64,000 nt of DNA, taken from contig SVPY01000008.1 of NCBI GenBank assembly GCA_015065615.1, positions 1 through 64,000 on the forward strand. The letters are read 5' to 3'. Below, one piece after another: positions 12,843 through 46,094 of this stretch. A model generated the notes under the pieces. That model saw only the letters and a program-made list of their open reading frames with translations. It was not told the DNA's origin and ran no database searches. The stretch is from Oscillospiraceae bacterium (lineage in GTDB: Bacteria > Bacillota > Clostridia > Oscillospirales > Acutalibacteraceae). The first letter of the stretch is position 1. Each line of letters starts with the position of its first letter. The translations under genes were made by a program, and so were the position numbers.

Positions 12843-13003
12843 TTATCTTGAAAGTAAATCTTCTTCCGTCACGTAGTCTACAGGCTCGTAGTTTATAGCG
12901 AAGTTAATAAATTCCACGTAGCTTCTGTCTTCTTTAAAGTAGCTGTGAAACCTTGTTTCAAGACATTTTACGTAGGCTTTTCCACTTGTGTTTTTATTTT
13001 GAA
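12843..13003 (-). pseudogene. C-terminal remnant of a paralogue of the neighbouring lipoprotein
   Basis: Minus-strand translation QNKNTSGKAYVKCLETRFHSYFKEDRSYVEFINFAINYEPVDYVTEEDLLSR* aligns to QNKKDGITYVKCLIEKFDSYFDEDRSYIDFINFAVNHEPEPYNPYNDMTSK of the adjacent ORF; no start of its own. Confidence 0.75.
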
Positions 13004-13563
13004 GTCATATCGTTATAGGGGTTATACGGTTCGGGTTCGTGATTAACTGCAAAATTAATAAAATCAATATAGCTTCTGTCTTCATCAAAATAACTATCGA
13101 ACTTTTCTATAAGGCATTTCACATAGGTTATACCATCTTTTTTATTTTGATAACATAAAAACGGATTACGGTCGAAAATAATCAAACCTTCTTTTATATA
13201 CTCATCAGTTTCCTTTTCGCGTAAGCGATTGGCATACCACCACGGAAGAGAGCAGACATATTTCCCTGTTTTTTTAGGTGATTTTGTTTCTTCACTGAGA
13301 ATATATTCAGGTATAAATTTAAGCGATTTCACTTTATTATCTTCTAAAAGATAATACTTACCGTCTTTTATATCACCAATATCTGTATATACTGGTTTAC
13401 CATCAATAAATTCAAGTTCAAGCACATCAAACTCTTTATTACCGAGATTTTCAAATGTTGGTAACTCTACTTCGGTAATTACAATTTTTTCTTTGTGCTG
13501 ACTGCATCCGCTAAAAAACAAAGCAAGTAAAAACGCTAAAAGCAGAAGGGTGATTTTTTTCAT
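12994..13563 (-). CDS. Hypothetical lipoprotein
   Basis: MKKITLLLLAFLLALFFSGC lipobox; RBS-like sequence upstream. Confidence 0.6.
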   Translation of the reverse strand: MKKITLLLLAFLLALFFSGCSQHKEKIVITEVELPTFENLGNKEFDVLELEFIDGKPVYTDIGDIKDGKYYLLEDNKVKSLKFIPEYILSEETKSPKKTGKYVCSLPWWYANRLREKETDEYIKEGLIIFDRNPFLCYQNKKDGITYVKCLIEKFDSYFDEDRSYIDFINFAVNHEPEPYNPYNDMTSK

Positions 13564-13574
13564 TACCTATCTCC

Positions 13575-13796
13575 TTAGTTGTAATAAACGTGATCACTAA
13601 AATTGTGTGGAGTATTATAATTATCATACCACAATTGAACCCCGTTTACTCCGTAAGATTCATTTACGTAAATTGTATAAACGTAATGTCCTGTGTTTTC
13701 GTTTCGCACGATTCTGTAACCGTGCGCTGTCATAACGTGACCCGGGCGGCTAATGGTTAACGGTTGATTTGAATCAATTTCTGTTTCAATTACCAT
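13575..13796 (-). CDS. Short protein, possibly a truncated papain-/C39-like peptidase C-terminus
   Basis: PGHVMTAHGYRIV...YTIYVNESYG resembles the His/Asn half of papain-fold peptidases; no Cys half present. Confidence 0.35.
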   Translation of the reverse strand: MVIETEIDSNQPLTISRPGHVMTAHGYRIVRNENTGHYVYTIYVNESYGVNGVQLWYDNYNTPHNFSDHVYYN

Positions 13797-14043
13797 AAGG
13801 CACCACTTCCTTTCCGTAATAAAGAGTAAAGCTAAATAAAATTAAATTAAGCTTTACTTATCCCATTACTTCTTACAACATTATAATACCATAAATATAC
13901 AGTAATTTCAATTTGGGAATATTCACAATTTTGCCCCCCAAAAAAAATTTTGTACAAAAAGGAGAAAAATATTTTTCCGCCCTTTAACTATTGCGATTAT
14001 CCCAGCGGTATGGTATACTTATAGTGTTGGAGATAATAAAAAG

Positions 14044-32567: not shown

Positions 32568-32622
32568 AAAAATAAAAATGACCCTTGATTGTTTCATCAC
32601 CAGTAATCCACAATCAAGGGTC
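32568..32622 (-). terminator. Terminator hairpin of ncRNA copy 1
   Basis: GACCCTTGATTGT-GGATTACTGGTGATGAA-ACAATCAAGGGTC-ATTTTTATTTTT on the minus strand. Confidence 0.8.
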
Positions 32623-33118
32623 ATTTCTGTTCAATCTTAGTATCTAACATCAATTGTTTACCTTCGCTTTCTTTGAACTGAAACGATACCCATTTATTAA
32701 ATTTTCCTTATGCGTTCTCTTTATTTCGTACTACCTTTCCATATTATTTTCTCTTTCCTTAAATTCGGTTATCTTTAAGCTTAATCTTAAAGTATTTTCT
32801 AAATTTATCTTCTTTAAAAAATATACCGTAATTTATTTTTTAAGAATTCTATCGTACGTGCTTTTCGAGAACTCTTTTTCGTGAGGCATCATTTCGTGAT
32901 TCCTTTTTTCAGGAGAAATTTTGGAGTCAGTCTTGCTTTTTTTGCTCACATCTGAAATTCTGTTTCCTAATGGCGGCTCGTGCCGAATTTTAATTTTCCT
33001 AATTATTTTTTTGGTTACTTCAATTCTCCTCGCTGAATCTTTTGGCCCTTTAATAATTATTTAAATTAAATCGGTTTTAAGATTAGTACATTGGACTCAT
33101 CCTTTCTTTTCTGTGATT
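32568..33118 (-). ncRNA. Candidate long structured ncRNA, copy 1
   Basis: Repeated at 39687-40082 in inverted orientation: shared promoter, AAAGGATGAGTCCAATGTAC start, AAAAGCAC(R)TACGATA and TATTTTTTAAAGAAGA...ACTTTAAGATTA blocks, and a covarying terminator stem. Confidence 0.7.
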
Positions 33119-33120
33119 AA

Positions 33121-33149
33121 ATAATAACATAAAATTCACTAAAATACAA
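33121..33149 (-). promoter_or_regulatory. Promoter of ncRNA copy 1
   Basis: TTGTAT-17-TATTAT, conserved in position with copy 2. Confidence 0.6.
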
Positions 33150-33221
33150 TATGGAATAATGCACAAATATAAAGGCACCGAATTGTGCAAAAGGGAGAAA
33201 ATAATGTGATGTGCGCAAAAA

Positions 33222-33292
33222 CTATTGACATTTAGTATATAATGTGATAATATAAATGTGTTGGGTTGCTTTTTTCGGGAGAGCTACCCGTT
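33222..33292 (+). promoter_or_regulatory. Divergent promoter and leader hairpin of copy 1
   Basis: TTGACA-17-TAATAT then TGTGTTGGGTTGCTTTTTTCGGGAGAGCTACCCG, same leader as upstream of the YgjP-like gene in copy 2. Confidence 0.55.
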
Positions 33293-33381
33293 TAATTTTA
33301 TTTTAAATTATTATTTTATGAAGTTTATAAAAAGTAAGGCAGCTGATTTTATTCAGCCGCCTTTTTCTTTTTGTAATTTGA

Positions 33382-38084: not shown

Positions 38085-38207
38085 CCCCGAATTAAGGGAC
38101 GCATCTTTCGGTAACTGACGGATTATTGTGGTCACACAAAGGGAGCCGAAAGAAAATAAAGCCGACCGTCTGGGCAGATCTGCAGTGATGCAGGTTTGCC
38201 CTTTTTG
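38085..38207 (+). promoter_or_regulatory. Probable ZTP (pfl) riboswitch with overlapping intrinsic terminator
   Basis: AACTGACGGA...GTGGTCACAC...GGGAGCC...CCGACCGTCTGGGCA resembles the pfl-motif core; GGGCAGATCTGCAGTGATGCAGGTTTGCCC-TTTTTG terminator. Confidence 0.75.
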
Positions 38208-38240: not shown

Positions 38241-38849
38241 ATGATTCAGGGAACAATTAAAGGTATTTTGGCAGGCCTTTGCATTTCCATAGGCGGAAGT
38301 GTATTTTTATCCTGCGAAAGCAAGGTGGTAGGAGCTATTTTCTTCTGCGTAGCGCTTCTTGCTATCTGTATGTTTGGTTTTGCTCTTTTTACAGGTAAGG
38401 TTGGCTTTTTAGCCGTAAACCATACAAAAACAGATTTCAGAGATGTGCTTACTTCTCTTCTCGGCAATTTCATCGGCTGTGTGTTATTCGGCCTTATGAT
38501 TCAGGTAGGCGCACCTAAGTTAATTTCAGCGGCGCAGGTTATCTGTACGGCTAAATTGGCTCAGACTGTTTGGGAAGCTCTTATCCGCGCATTTTTCTGC
38601 GGTGTGCTTATGTATGCCGCCGTATGGATCTACAGAAACAAAAACAGCATATCTGCAATTTTCTTCTGTGTTCCGGTGTTTATTTTAAGCGGTTTCGAGC
38701 ACTCAATTGCAAATATGTTCTATTTTGCAGTATCAGGCTATTTTACCTGGGAGGCTTTAATTTACATAGTGCTTATCGTAATAGGTAACAGCGTAGGCGG
38801 TTTATTTATTCCCATGATGCTGAAGCTTTGCGAGGAAAAGAAGGCTTAA
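38241..38849 (+). CDS. Formate/nitrite transporter (FNT) family protein
   Basis: GTIKGILAGLCISIGGSVFL, GNFIGCVLFG, FVLSGFEHSIANMFYF-like FNT motifs. Confidence 0.88.
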   Translation: MIQGTIKGILAGLCISIGGSVFLSCESKVVGAIFFCVALLAICMFGFALFTGKVGFLAVNHTKTDFRDVLTSLLGNFIGCVLFGLMIQVGAPKLISAAQVICTAKLAQTVWEALIRAFFCGVLMYAAVWIYRNKNSISAIFFCVPVFILSGFEHSIANMFYFAVSGYFTWEALIYIVLIVIGNSVGGLFIPMMLKLCEEKKA

Positions 38850-39487: not shown

Positions 39488-39499
39488 AAAAACTCCTTA

Positions 39500-39572
39500 A
39501 ATAAAAAATGGGGCAGCTTCCCCTAAAAAAAGCAACCCAACACATTAATAATAACACAAGGTATAATAAAAG
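39500..39572 (-). promoter_or_regulatory. Promoter and leader of the YgjP-like gene, shared with copy 1
   Basis: TTGACT-17-TATTAT then TGTGTTGGGTTGCTTTTTTTAGGGGAAGCTGCCCC. Confidence 0.55.
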
Positions 39573-39651
39573 TCAATAGATTTAATGCAAGTCAGAATAA
39601 ATTCTCCGTTTTACACAAAAACAAGTTTTGATATTTGTGCATTATTACATA

Positions 39652-39680
39652 TTGTAATTTTGTAAAAACTGTGTTACCAT
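39652..39680 (+). promoter_or_regulatory. Promoter of ncRNA copy 2
   Basis: TTGTAA-17-TACCAT aligned to copy 1 promoter. Confidence 0.6.
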
Positions 39681-39686
39681 ATAACC

Positions 39687-40082
39687 AGAGAAAAGAAAGG
39701 ATGAGTCCAATGTACGAATAAGTACACCGATGAATTAAATTTAAAAAGTTTAAGAAAAATCGGAAAAGAATTTTTTAAAACCTGAAAAAATCTCAAAAGC
39801 ACATACGATAAAGTCCCGAAAAATAAATAAATAAATTAAAGTATATTTTTTAAAGAAGAGAAATTTTGAAAATACTTTAAGATTAGGCTTAAAGAAAACT
39901 TGATTTAATTTTAGCGCAATAAAAGGGATAGTAAATCGACGGTAGTATGAAGAAAGAGATAAAAGGGTTAAATAAAGAAAGAGAAGGTAAAAAAACAGAT
40001 GTTAGATACAAAAATTGAACAGAAATAACCCTTGATTGCGGACTACTTGTGATGAAGCAATCGAGGGTTATTTTATTTTTGT
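39687..40082 (+). ncRNA. Candidate long structured ncRNA, copy 2 (shorter)
   Basis: See copy 1; lacks a central insertion of roughly 150 nt present in copy 1. Confidence 0.7.
40027..40082 (+). terminator. Terminator hairpin of ncRNA copy 2
   Basis: AACCCTTGATTGC-GGACTACTTGTGATGAA-GCAATCGAGGGTT-ATTTTATTTTTG. Confidence 0.8.
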
Positions 40083-43490: not shown

Positions 43491-43607
43491 TGTTGGCGAA
43501 AACCTATTGTCCCGGGCCGTTACCAGCCAAGTATCGTGGGCACACGCGAGCTTAACTTCTGTGTTCGGGATGGGAACAGGTGGACCCTCGCAGTAATCAA
43601 CACCAAC
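43491..43607 (-). rRNA. rrf: 5S ribosomal RNA (unit 1, distal copy)
   Basis: Minus strand GTTGGTGTTGATTACTGCGAGGGTCCACCTGTTCCCATCCCGAACACAGAAGTTAAGC...GGTTTTCGCCAAC; terminal stem pairs. Confidence 0.95.
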
Positions 43608-43631
43608 TTGAAACAATTCCTAAAAAGGAAG

Positions 43632-43748
43632 TGTTGGCAAAAACTTATTGTCCCGGGCCGTTACCAGCCAAGTATCGTCAGCACACGCGAGCTTAACTTC
43701 TGTGTTCGGGATGGGAACAGGTGGACCCTCGCAGTAATCAATACCAAC
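43632..43748 (-). rRNA. rrf: 5S ribosomal RNA (unit 1, proximal copy)
   Basis: Same 5S core with a few substitutions relative to the tandem copy. Confidence 0.95.
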
Positions 43749-43895: not shown

Positions 43896-45704
43896 TTATC
43901 CGTTATTTTCGTTATCAATAGCAATATAGGAAAGCAAACCGCCCCAGTGGTAAAATTTATCGCTTCGTTTTAAACTGCATCCCATACCGTCGTAGCAGCT
44001 GTAGTTTTCGTGTACATGACCCTTTAAACGCCATTCCTTTAAAAGAAGCTCCTCCGATTTATCGGCTAAATCATTACACTCCTTTTTAAGCCCTGCGTGT
44101 TTTAAAGAAATATAGGTAAGATAATTCATAGGCGCCCAGATACAGCCGCGCCAATATACGTGGTCGGGGAAGGCGGGGTCGTTTCGGGAAACAGAGGGCA
44201 GTACGTATTCACCCCAGAATTCTTCAGTGTTATAGAAATGCTCGTCCATCATTCTTCTTTTCTGAACTTCGCTTACACAGTCTGCCTGTAAAGCGTAGAA
44301 ATTGGTGGGGGAGATTCTCTTGGAAAACTCGTTTTTCGCTAAATCCTTATTTAAGAAAAGACCGAATTCTTCGTCCCATAAGGTTATAAGGGCCTTTTCG
44401 GTTCTTTCTTTTCGGATTTCAAGCTCCCTGATAACTTCATTGTTCCCTAAAATACGGGAGATTTCTATAAGGCTGCGGCAATCCATAATATAAAGACCCA
44501 TAAGACCTACGTCCGCAAGCTGCATCAGATGGGTCTCCTCGTCAAACGATGCGTTATCGTACATAGGGGAATTATCAAGACCGCTTTCAAGGGCGGCGCC
44601 GAAAACGTCGCCGATGCAGGCTTTCTCTTCGGGGCGGTCGCTTAAAGGTTTAAAGGGATCGCTGCCCCAGCAGAGGTAACCTTCTTTTGTGGTTCTATGC
44701 TCAGAGAACCAGCGGTTCCATTTGAGTAAATTGGGGTACACTTTTTCTAAGAACCACTTTTCAGGCCATCTCTTATAAACTTCAAGGCAGGCGTATGAGC
44801 CTACTGGAGGCTGAGAACGGTCACGGGATTTTAAATCGAATACACTGCCGAAATTGGGAATAAAGCCCTTTTCGGTTACTTCATCGGTAATTGCTATGGC
44901 GTTAAGAAAAGCAAGTTCCTTATTTTCCAGCGATTCCATAATTGCCGCGAAGTAGGTGTCCCAGTCAAAAAGTATGTAGCCTCCTCTTTCTACGTTCCAT
45001 ATACGGGAAACGGGGGAGCAGATTCTTTCATGCTCAGGCTCGTAAATCGTGTCCCACGCAAGGCAGGTTTTCATGGCTGTGTAGCTTTCGGCGTGTTTAC
45101 CGAATGCGCCGTTTGCTTTATTGAGCAGAGCTTTATTTTTATCGTAAATTTCCTGTACTTCAGAGAGGGTACAGGGCGCGGTGGAAATTACGAGAGGTTT
45201 ATCGAGAGTTACCGCAATATAAGGGGAGAGAGACGCGGTGTGCTTAATATCTGTGATATTGCCCGTTGTGAAAATTTCAAAGCGTCGGCTTTCGAAATCA
45301 CCGTAAATCTTACCGTTCTTTTTGCTTATGCTGCCTTCCTTGCCCCATAAAAGGCAGGCTTCAATAATGAGCACGGGTGTTCTTATGCCGATTTTCAAAG
45401 GTGTTACCATTATATACTGCTCATCGTTTTCTGTAGCAGTTTTTACGTCGATTTCAAGGTCTTTGTATTTTAAATTGAGCTGTGTACAGCTGCCGTCGTA
45501 ACTTCTTGCGCCGGGGAAAATCTGCTCGTCGTTTTTATTCTCCCTGCCTACAAGGCTTTCGCGCAGTATGTGTTCGCTGCTGTAGTCCTTAATACATAAA
45601 TTAACGGTAAAGCCTTCGGGCAGGTGGGAGTAAGATAGCACACTTCTTGTGTTCCAGGTATTCCAGCCTTTGTTTGTGTTCTTTTTCAGTATTTTGTAGT
45701 TCAT
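43896..45704 (-). CDS. MGH1/GH63-like (six-hairpin) glycoside hydrolase
   Basis: VERGGYILFDWDTYFAAIMESL, GFIPNFGS, RSQPPVGSYACLEVY, YWRGCIWAPMNYL motifs. Confidence 0.8.
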   Translation of the reverse strand: MNYKILKKNTNKGWNTWNTRSVLSYSHLPEGFTVNLCIKDYSSEHILRESLVGRENKNDEQIFPGARSYDGSCTQLNLKYKDLEIDVKTATENDEQYIMVTPLKIGIRTPVLIIEACLLWGKEGSISKKNGKIYGDFESRRFEIFTTGNITDIKHTASLSPYIAVTLDKPLVISTAPCTLSEVQEIYDKNKALLNKANGAFGKHAESYTAMKTCLAWDTIYEPEHERICSPVSRIWNVERGGYILFDWDTYFAAIMESLENKELAFLNAIAITDEVTEKGFIPNFGSVFDLKSRDRSQPPVGSYACLEVYKRWPEKWFLEKVYPNLLKWNRWFSEHRTTKEGYLCWGSDPFKPLSDRPEEKACIGDVFGAALESGLDNSPMYDNASFDEETHLMQLADVGLMGLYIMDCRSLIEISRILGNNEVIRELEIRKERTEKALITLWDEEFGLFLNKDLAKNEFSKRISPTNFYALQADCVSEVQKRRMMDEHFYNTEEFWGEYVLPSVSRNDPAFPDHVYWRGCIWAPMNYLTYISLKHAGLKKECNDLADKSEELLLKEWRLKGHVHENYSCYDGMGCSLKRSDKFYHWGGLLSYIAIDNENNG

Positions 45705-45836: not shown

Positions 45837-45953
45837 TGTTGGCGAAAACCTATTGTCCCGGGCCGTTACCAGCCAAGTATCGTGGGCACACGCGAGCTTA
45901 ACTTCTGTGTTCGGGATGGGAACAGGTGGACCCTCGCAGTAATCAACACCAAC
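45837..45953 (-). rRNA. rrf: 5S ribosomal RNA (unit 2, distal copy)
   Basis: Appears identical to 43491-43607 on inspection. Confidence 0.95.
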
Positions 45954-45977
45954 TTGAAACAATTCCTAAAAAGGAAG

Positions 45978-46094
45978 TGTTGGCAAAAACTTATTGTCCC
46001 GGGCCGTTACCAGCCAAGTATCGTCAGCACACGCGAGCTTAACTTCTGTGTTCGGGATGGGAACAGGTGGACCCTCGCAGTAATCAATACCAAC
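45978..46094 (-). rRNA. rrf: 5S ribosomal RNA (unit 2, proximal copy)
   Basis: Appears identical to 43632-43748 on inspection. Confidence 0.95.

What the first reader, a model, noticed from the sequence alone, without database searches (positions are those of the whole stretch)
32568..33118. Candidate unannotated long ncRNA, copy 1, with a covarying terminator stem
An intergenic region of about 550 nt with no credible ORF aligns (minus strand) to 39687-40082 (plus strand). Shared segments: AGAAAAGAAAGGATGAGTCCAATGTAC at the 5' end; AAAAGCAC(G/A)TACGATA; (G)GTATATTTTTTAAAGAAGA(T/G)AAATTT(A/T)GAAAATACTTTAAGATTA(A/G)GCTTAAAG; GATGTTAGATAC..A..ATTGAACAGAAAT at the 3' end. The 3' hairpin shows compensatory or wobble changes: GACCC/GGGTC vs AACCC/GGGTT, ATTGT/ACAAT vs ATTGC/GCAAT, and TTGATT/AATCAA vs TTGATT/AATCGA. 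The loop GGA(T/C)TACT(G/T)GTGATGAA is conserved. This pattern suggests a selected structured RNA. I cannot match it by eye to OLE, GOLLD, HEARO, ROOL, 6S, tmRNA or RNase P.
Basis: partly seen in the sequence, partly recalled or inferred. Interest (0 to 1): 0.82.

Follow-up and report, generated by a model that had tools for sequence, protein, structure and literature searches.

The report
New two-ORF RNA family in Clostridia
The stretch is one copy of a previously uncatalogued, free-standing RNA gene, found in many species of gut and rumen Clostridia, that folds into a conserved shape and carries a three-codon reading frame at its start and a nine-codon frame at its end, built in a way that matches no RNA class tested here.

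Summary
Copies 1 and 2 belong to a dispersed family: at least four copies in this genome, 1-5 per positive genome, in at least 18 families of class Clostridia (48/398, 73/396 and 24/392 genomes in family, order and class draws). No other genome matched in a phylum draw, and no viral contig. Nothing in Rfam 15 matches.

Shared anatomy: (1) a conserved divergent promoter with operator-like half-sites; (2) on the far side, a promoter firing straight into a terminator hairpin; (3) a strong Shine-Dalgarno and a 2-3-codon ORF at the 5' end (112 of 123, 34 different tripeptides); (4) a variable middle with a long-range helix (z=16 against swapped arms) and a CUUA-loop hairpin; (5) a conserved 9-10-codon ORF (consensus MLDIKSEQK) whose stop lies in (6) a terminator in which all 18 pairs show compensatory changes.

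Neighbours vary and downstream genes run either way (33 same, 39 opposite), so it is not a leader or attenuator. Best reading: an autonomous, regulated, dual-function RNA stabilised at its 5' end by ribosome loading. Targets, expression and peptide function are untested.

The parts
33263..33304 (+). Copy 1, divergent unit: terminator-like hairpin GGGTTGCT..AGCTACCC + U-run, about 10 nt after its promoter
   Evidence: Fold -12.4 kcal/mol; homologous hairpin in other copies, present at score >=18 in 60% of 116 divergent promoters against 1% of shuffles
33225..33253 (+). Copy 1, divergent promoter TTGACA-N17-TAATAT
   Evidence: Located; conserved TTGAC/TATTAT pair in the family
33147..33192 (-). 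Copy 1, operator-like element: half-sites TTTTGCACAA and TTTGTGCA..TTCCATATTG, ungapped to the promoter
   Evidence: position-specific conservation over 125 non-redundant promoters
33121..33149 (-). Copy 1, RNA promoter TTGTAT-N17-TATTAT
   Evidence: spacing 17 in 143 of 145 family promoters (the scoring favoured 17)
32568..33114 (-). Copy 1, the RNA gene (predicted transcript)
   Evidence: Promoter and terminator positions; fold z=-5.1
33083..33107 (-). Copy 1, 5' Shine-Dalgarno AGAAAGG and ultra-short ORF ATG TAC TAA (MY*)
   Evidence: family-wide 2-3-codon ORF
32680..32895 (-). Copy 1, long-range helix P1: 5' arm GAAATGATGCC (32885-32895), 3' arm GGGTATCGTTTC (32680-32691)
   Evidence: In the minimum free energy fold; equivalent helix covaries in the family
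32773..32792 (-). Copy 1, inner hairpin CTTTAAG-ATTAAG-CTTAAAG, possible equivalent of family hairpin H2
   Evidence: conserved in copy 2 and in G001
32621..32650 (-). Copy 1, 3' ORF ATGTTAGATACTAAGATTGAACAGAAATGA = MLDTKIEQK*, Shine-Dalgarno at 32661-32667
   Evidence: 72 of 81 family hits have this 9-codon ORF
32568..32627 (-). Copy 1, covarying terminator hairpin and U-run; the ORF stop codon lies in its 5' stem
39499..39538 (-). Copy 2, divergent terminator-like hairpin
   Evidence: fold -12.1 kcal/mol, z=-1.4
39548..39576 (-). Copy 2, divergent promoter TTGACT-N17-TATTAT
39609..39654 (+). Copy 2, operator-like element
39652..39680 (+). Copy 2, RNA promoter TTGTAA-N17-TACCAT
39687..40080 (+). 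Copy 2, the RNA gene (predicted transcript)
   Evidence: fold z=-4.65
39694..39721 (+). Copy 2, 5' Shine-Dalgarno and ultra-short ORF ATG TAC GAA TAA (MYE*)
39779..39969 (+). Copy 2, long-range helix P1: arms AACCTGAAAAAATCTC (39779-39794) and GAGATAAAAGGGTT (39956-39969)
39999..40028 (+). Copy 2, 3' ORF MLDTKIEQK*, Shine-Dalgarno at 39981-39987
40022..40080 (+). Copy 2, covarying terminator
13871..14030 (-). Promoter-only relative: same divergent promoter/operator element, without the RNA, ahead of a 73-aa ORF and a small lipoprotein gene (13563-12994)
   Evidence: R2 profile E=2e-11; ORFs

Best explanation
It is a member of a new family of autonomous, dispersed RNA genes of class Clostridia. 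SHOWN by comparison: each gene has its own regulated-looking sigma-A-type promoter, a 5' strong Shine-Dalgarno with a 2-3-codon ORF, a variable middle folded by a long-range helix and a CUUA-loop hairpin, a conserved 9-10-codon ORF, and an intrinsic terminator that contains that ORF's stop codon. INFERRED: a transcription factor acting on the half-sites turns the gene on. The transcript is then kept stable because ribosomes continually load on the tiny ORF about 10-17 nt from the 5' end and block 5'-to-3' decay (RNase J type), while the terminator hairpin protects the 3' end. The long-lived structured RNA acts in trans as a dual-function regulator: the rapidly evolving middle makes the base-pairing or protein contacts, and the conserved 9-aa frame supplies a micro-peptide, or a fixed translation event, as the second output. 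The divergent promoter that fires into a terminator is read as part of the switch (a micro-RNA or a transcriptional insulator).
For: Family and spread. Specificity: 0 other genomes in a 349-genome phylum draw and 0 viral contigs for a 3'-module pattern. The promoter model lies upstream of nearly all 3'-module hits and 145 promoters stack without gaps. 5' ORF: stop after exactly 3 sense codons in 102 and after 2 in 10 of 123 Shine-Dalgarno/ATG 5' ends; 7.9 expected with the stop as 4th codon, maximum 21 in 1000 shuffles; other frames 1 and 1; 34 different tripeptides. 3' ORF: 72 of 81 hits have exactly 9 codons; changes at Leu2 (11) and Lys5 (10) are synonymous apart from one re-registered row; most of the other nine are 10-codon forms such as MKLDFKSEQK with a GTG start. 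Structure: P1 cognate arms 18.31 against 14.34, z=16, control window -1.7; CUUA-type hairpin in 49 of 145 RNAs against 9-16 in shuffles; terminator covariation. Autonomy: downstream gene same strand 33, opposite 39; 81 units in 65 locus groups. 5' ribosome protection of RNA in Bacillus: PMC3997798.
Against: No expression, ribosome-profiling or genetic data. No target was sought. The ribosome-protection step is by analogy with B. subtilis. Of 142 unique 5' ends, 19 show no Shine-Dalgarno/ATG in the first 60 nt. The 9-aa peptide is short and hydrophilic, matches nothing here, and part of its nucleotide conservation may come from overlap with the terminator. Presence is patchy, so it is not a housekeeping function.
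Confidence: 0.5

Rival explanations
1. It is mainly an mRNA for the conserved 9-10-aa micro-peptide. The long structured leader with its 2-3-codon upstream ORF only regulates translation of that peptide, and the RNA has no function of its own.
For: Codon-level conservation, alternative starts (GTG, TTG, shifted ATG) that keep the frame, and a Shine-Dalgarno 9-11 nt upstream. P1's 3' arm ends 22-40 nt before this Shine-Dalgarno.
Against: A 200-550-nt structured leader would be very long for 27 nt of coding sequence. The peptide has no signal sequence or hydrophobic part. Two copies in this genus lose the C-terminal half of the peptide (MLDTKNHI*, MLDTKFHRNDP*) yet keep promoter, 5' motif and terminator.
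Confidence: 0.2
2. It is a cis-acting leader: a ribosome finishing the 9-codon ORF covers the terminator stem and lets polymerase read into the downstream gene (translation-coupled attenuation).
For: The stop codon lies inside the terminator's 5' stem in nearly all hits, the geometry of a ribosome-mediated attenuator. Copy 1 is followed by a co-directional lipoprotein gene, and the same promoter precedes other lipoprotein genes.
Against: Downstream genes are on the same strand in 33 and on the opposite strand in 39 cases and are of unrelated kinds. Copy 2 is followed by a second terminator-like hairpin before the next gene.
Confidence: 0.1
3. It is a non-autonomous mobile repeat (MITE-like) with hairpin ends; its conservation reflects mobility, not host function.
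For: Dispersed, multi-copy, tandem in several loci, and with hairpins at both outer ends, as in IS200/IS605-like elements (the last from general knowledge).
Against: Three loci are shared between two species of the genus with the copies diverged in place, and close relatives share loci with both neighbours. No hits in the phage or plasmid records searched or in viral contigs. Internal codons, promoter spacing and pairings are under selection.
Confidence: 0.07
4. It is a trans-acting sRNA family (sibling sRNAs) in which both 'ORFs' are only ribosome docking sites; neither peptide matters.
For: The sequence of the 5' tripeptide is free while its length is fixed, as a docking site would be. Multi-copy sibling sRNAs under one regulator are a known arrangement (general knowledge).
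Against: The 3' ORF keeps its amino-acid sequence through synonymous changes.
Confidence: 0.13

Closest known systems
Dual-function sRNAs (SR1/SR1P of Bacillus subtilis, RNAIII/delta-haemolysin of Staphylococcus, SgrS/SgrT)
   Same: Free-standing structured RNA with its own promoter and terminator that also carries a short ORF
   Different: Their ORFs are longer; here there are two conserved ORFs of 2-3 and 9-10 codons, the second ending inside the terminator. No target is known. Comparison from general knowledge, and (PMC8501984) for SR1
Large bacterial ncRNA families (OLE, GOLLD, ROOL, HEARO)
   Same: Long (~400-550 nt) conserved RNA in Firmicutes, of unknown function
   Different: No Rfam match of any kind over the unit; a much smaller paired core; conserved mini-ORFs; several copies per genome
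5' ribosome-binding stabilisers of Bacillus (ermC, cryIIIA, gsiB, hbs) and the mini-ORF protection of a T3SS mRNA
   Same: A strong Shine-Dalgarno at the very 5' end that protects long, even untranslated, downstream RNA (PMC3997798)
   Different: There it is one feature of an mRNA; here a 2-3-codon ORF is present in most members of an RNA gene family. The analogy is one of working, not of descent
Translation-coupled attenuators with leader peptides
   Same: A short ORF whose stop overlaps the 5' half of an intrinsic terminator
   Different: No conserved or co-directional downstream gene
Gut-1 RNA (RF01706)
   Same: A gut-bacterial RNA of unknown function, found next to two members in one genus (L263, L264)
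   Different: It lies outside the unit, beyond the divergent hairpin; other members searched lack it

Membership tests
Any Rfam 15 family (including OLE, GOLLD, ROOL, HEARO, 6S, tmRNA, RNase P) | Score at or above the family's gathering threshold over the unit | tested here: not met
   Searches (whole window; 10 loci of other genera) give no match in the unit; at E<=10 gives only sub-threshold matches, mostly microRNA models on the terminator hairpin
6S RNA | It would be the genome's 6S RNA | tested here: not met
   The genome has its own 6S at C55:76036-76239, 58.2 bits, over the cut-off
tmRNA | tRNA-like domain plus tag ORF | tested here: not met
   ARAGORN finds no tRNA or tmRNA in the window, Rfam none in the unit; the 9-codon ORF has its own Shine-Dalgarno and start codon
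Dual-function sRNA (works-like class, not a homology family) | Own promoter and terminator, stand-alone locus | tested here: met
Dual-function sRNA (works-like class, not a homology family) | Conserved translated ORF inside the RNA | tested here: inconclusive
   Codon-level conservation is strong; translation itself is not shown
Dual-function sRNA (works-like class, not a homology family) | Base-pairing or protein-binding activity of the RNA on targets | not tested
   No target search was made; it would need expression or pull-down data
Leader-peptide attenuator | Conserved co-directional regulated gene downstream | tested here: not met
   33 same strand, 39 opposite, unrelated genes
Mobile element / MITE | Presence in mobile replicons, empty sites, target duplications | tested here: inconclusive
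   No hits in viral contigs, plasmids or phages (one query each); loci shared by related species; empty sites not examined, synteny with G002 lost

The most novel reading that the evidence does not exclude
A new class of bacterial RNA gene that uses an ultra-short 2-3-codon ORF as an obligatory ribosome 'cap' on a structured regulatory RNA, paired with a conserved 9-aa micro-peptide frame locked into the terminator and a divergent micro-RNA consisting only of a terminator hairpin, all controlled by one divergent promoter. It would be a translation-coupled RNA device without a known counterpart, widespread in gut and rumen Clostridia.
Probability: 0.35. Interest if true: 0.92.

Novelty: new variant of a known kind. 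Interest (0 to 1): 0.8.

Why it matters
A selected RNA gene present in many gut and rumen Clostridia, often in several copies, has no Rfam entry. Its frame of fixed length but free sequence (2-3 codons) is an unusually clear signature that the act of ribosome binding, not a product, is under selection. It makes testable the question whether bacteria use ribosomes as 5' caps for regulatory RNAs, and it adds a candidate conserved 9-aa micro-peptide below the size that gene finders report. The covariance-model alignments can be used directly to annotate it.

Tried and rejected
Decayed coding sequence: rejected, since pairings, codons and promoter spacing are conserved across families. Known Rfam class: none; sub-threshold microRNA-model hits on the terminator hairpin and a weak sbrA match (21 bits against a cut-off of 45) were taken as chance. 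Missing 6S RNA: rejected. Gut-1 RNA as the divergent transcript: first suspected, rejected because it lies beyond the divergent hairpin and occurs in one genus only. Weak promoter-profile hits in other genera (E 1e-4 to 1e-7; L056-L069): the eight inspected are ordinary AT-rich promoters before genes or nothing, so the lipoprotein link is claimed only for this genus. Pfam for three of the lipoproteins and the 73-aa protein: nothing. G002, the third genome of the genus: no homologue by DNA or model at E<=1e-3, and synteny around copy 2 is lost, so no empty-site test. Duplex energies for P1 timed out and were replaced by an ungapped helix score. Literature: no description found; a large human-microbiome survey of structured RNAs (PMC8040213) could contain pieces of it, but its supplementary tables could not be opened.

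Full report
OBSERVATION. The two regions align as stated, on the stated strands. Similarity continues about 180 bp upstream into a shared promoter/operator and a divergent promoter with a terminator-like hairpin. Both RNAs fold better than dinucleotide shuffles (z=-5.1 and -4.65).

FAMILY. A DNA search of the own genome (2.65 Mb) found further copies on C23 and C27. A second species of the genus has the same pair plus the C23 and C27 counterparts. Two models were built from separate parts: R1 on the 3' module and R2 on the promoter. In a family draw of 150 genomes both hit, in the same order and on the same strand, in nine further genomes of eight or more genera. A broader model, R3, from 29 diverse sequences matched 48 of 398 genomes of the family, 73 of 396 of the order and 24 of 392 of the class at E<=1e-3, in at least 18 families at strong E-values. 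In a phylum draw of 349 genomes only the own genome matched at E<=1e-6. Positive genomes carry 1-5 copies; tandem arrays occur (L093, L135, L154 and others). One query each against plasmids and phages gave nothing.

PROMOTER. The R2 element sits upstream of nearly every 3'-module hit. Over 125 non-redundant promoters the profile is TTG(A/C)AA-N17-extended -10 (TGnTATATTATAG), preceded at fixed distance by two half-sites, about TTTTGCATAA and TTTGTACAAA, and by TTnCATnTTG running into the -35. The -35/-10 part was used to stack the sequences, so only the upstream columns are independent evidence. On the other side a second promoter (TTGAC-N17-TATTAT type) is followed within about 10 nt by a terminator-like hairpin with a U-rich tail: score >=18 in 60% of 116 cases against 1% of shuffled sequences; six examples fold at -11.5 to -15.8 kcal/mol. 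In this genus the same element, without the RNA, precedes genes of small lipoproteins, including one site in this window (13871-14030, minus), which suggests a shared regulon. Pfam has no family for those tested.

5' MINI-ORF. Of 142 unique 5' ends, 123 have a Shine-Dalgarno and an ATG within 60 nt. In 102 of these the stop comes after exactly three sense codons and in 10 after two; shuffling the downstream sequence gives 7.9 with the stop as fourth codon (maximum 21 in 1000 runs), and the other two frames have one each. Codons two and three are free: 34 different tripeptides. Length, not sequence, is conserved. The Shine-Dalgarno is often extended (GAGGTGAT), the perfect complement of the 16S rRNA 3' end (general knowledge), and the ATG usually starts 10-17 nt from the inferred 5' end. 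The copies here read MY* and MYE*.

MIDDLE. Length varies (median about 280 nt between 5' end and second Shine-Dalgarno). A long-range helix P1 joins a 5' arm 105-150 nt and a 3' arm about 22-40 nt upstream of that Shine-Dalgarno. With 109 dereplicated RNAs the own arms pair far better than swapped arms (18.31 against 14.34, z=16, 0 of 20000 permutations), while a neighbouring control window gives z=-1.7, which argues against shared base composition as the cause. Inside P1, 49 of 145 RNAs show a hairpin with a CUUA/ACUUAC/GCUUAA-type loop and freely varying stem (shuffles 9-16).

3' ORF AND TERMINATOR. In the pattern-based set all 81 members keep the frame, and the TRR position is always a stop (TGA 50, TAA 28, TAG 3, TGG 0). 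In the model-based set, where the pattern imposes nothing, 72 of 81 have exactly nine codons; Leu2 varies TTA/CTG/TTG/CTA, Lys5 AAG/AAA and Lys9 mostly AAA/AAG, and most of the other nine are ten-codon forms with a shifted start (MKLDLKSEQK, MKLDFKSEQK with GTG, MTLDIKNEQK). The consensus is MLDIKSEQK. The stop codon lies inside the terminator stem. On 84 distinct sequences 97.9% of cells pair and all 18 pairs show changes on both sides; 0 of 500 shuffles and no slid version reach this. That alignment was fitted to the model, which favours pairing; the smaller sequence-based alignments agree.

CONTEXT. The next gene downstream is on the same strand in 33 and on the opposite strand in 39 cases and is of no constant kind. 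The 81 named units fall into 65 locus groups, shared only between close relatives. It is therefore a free-standing gene inherited in place over short times and spread to new loci over long times, not a leader of one gene.

WHAT IT IS NOT. No Rfam family reaches threshold in the unit. The genome has its own 6S RNA. Gut-1 RNA occurs beside, not in, two members of one genus.

MECHANISM. Shown by comparison: dedicated promoter, mini-ORFs under selection, structured middle, terminator, autonomy. Inferred: (a) a regulator on the half-sites; (b) ribosomes loading on the 2-3-codon ORF protect the 5' end, as strong Shine-Dalgarno sequences do for untranslated RNA in Bacillus (PMC3997798); (c) the RNA acts in trans through its variable middle; (d) the conserved 9-aa frame is a second output. 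I hold the existence of the new RNA gene family at about 0.95, and this mechanism as a whole at about 0.5, with (d) the least certain. The label 'new variant of a known kind' reflects that it most probably works as a regulatory RNA with small ORFs, although nothing with this architecture was found; the reading as a separate class is given as the novel case.

Noticed in passing
window 13871-14030 (minus), 13575-13796, 12994-13563: The promoter/operator element of the RNA family without the RNA, ahead of a 73-aa ORF and a small lipoprotein gene; similar promoter-only sites on C30, C44 and C2 of the genome and in G001 also precede small lipoprotein genes without Pfam family.
   Followed up: partly
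window 33225-33304 (+) and 39499-39576 (-): Conserved divergent promoter that fires into a terminator hairpin within about 10 nt (transcript about 30-45 nt starting near GUUGGG). Its 5' GUUGG could pair with CCAAU/CCGAU beside the start codon of the 5' mini-ORF, but only over about 5 pairs.
   Followed up: partly
window 43491-43748 and 45837-46094 (minus): Four 5S rRNA genes in two near-identical pairs (Rfam 78-80 bits) on either side of a large ORF (43896-45704); spurious ORFs of 101 and 151 aa are called across them.
   Followed up: no
window 38101-38182 (+): ZTP riboswitch (RF01750, 52 bits) directly upstream of a membrane-protein ORF (38241-38849).
   Followed up: no
G001 contigs C155, C116, C193: In the second species the two inverted copies corresponding to copies 1 and 2 are nearly identical to each other, while here they are about 75% identical: possible gene conversion between inverted copies, also the likely cause of assembly breaks there.
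   Followed up: no
L263:2147-2220 and L264:2154-2227: Gut-1 RNA (RF01706) beside a member of the family, in a stretch rich in GTGAAGTT repeats.
   Followed up: partly
L093, L135, L092, L124, L126, L144, L127, L154: Tandem arrays of two or three promoter-RNA units; in L093 the first unit has a TTG start and reads MTDFKSSQK.
   Followed up: no
L012:1132-1541 and L004:1263-1669 (minus): The C60/C23 subfamily repeats the block around GGATGAGTCC two to three times and has shortened or altered 3' ORFs (MLDTKFHRNDP*, MLDTKNHI*).
   Followed up: no
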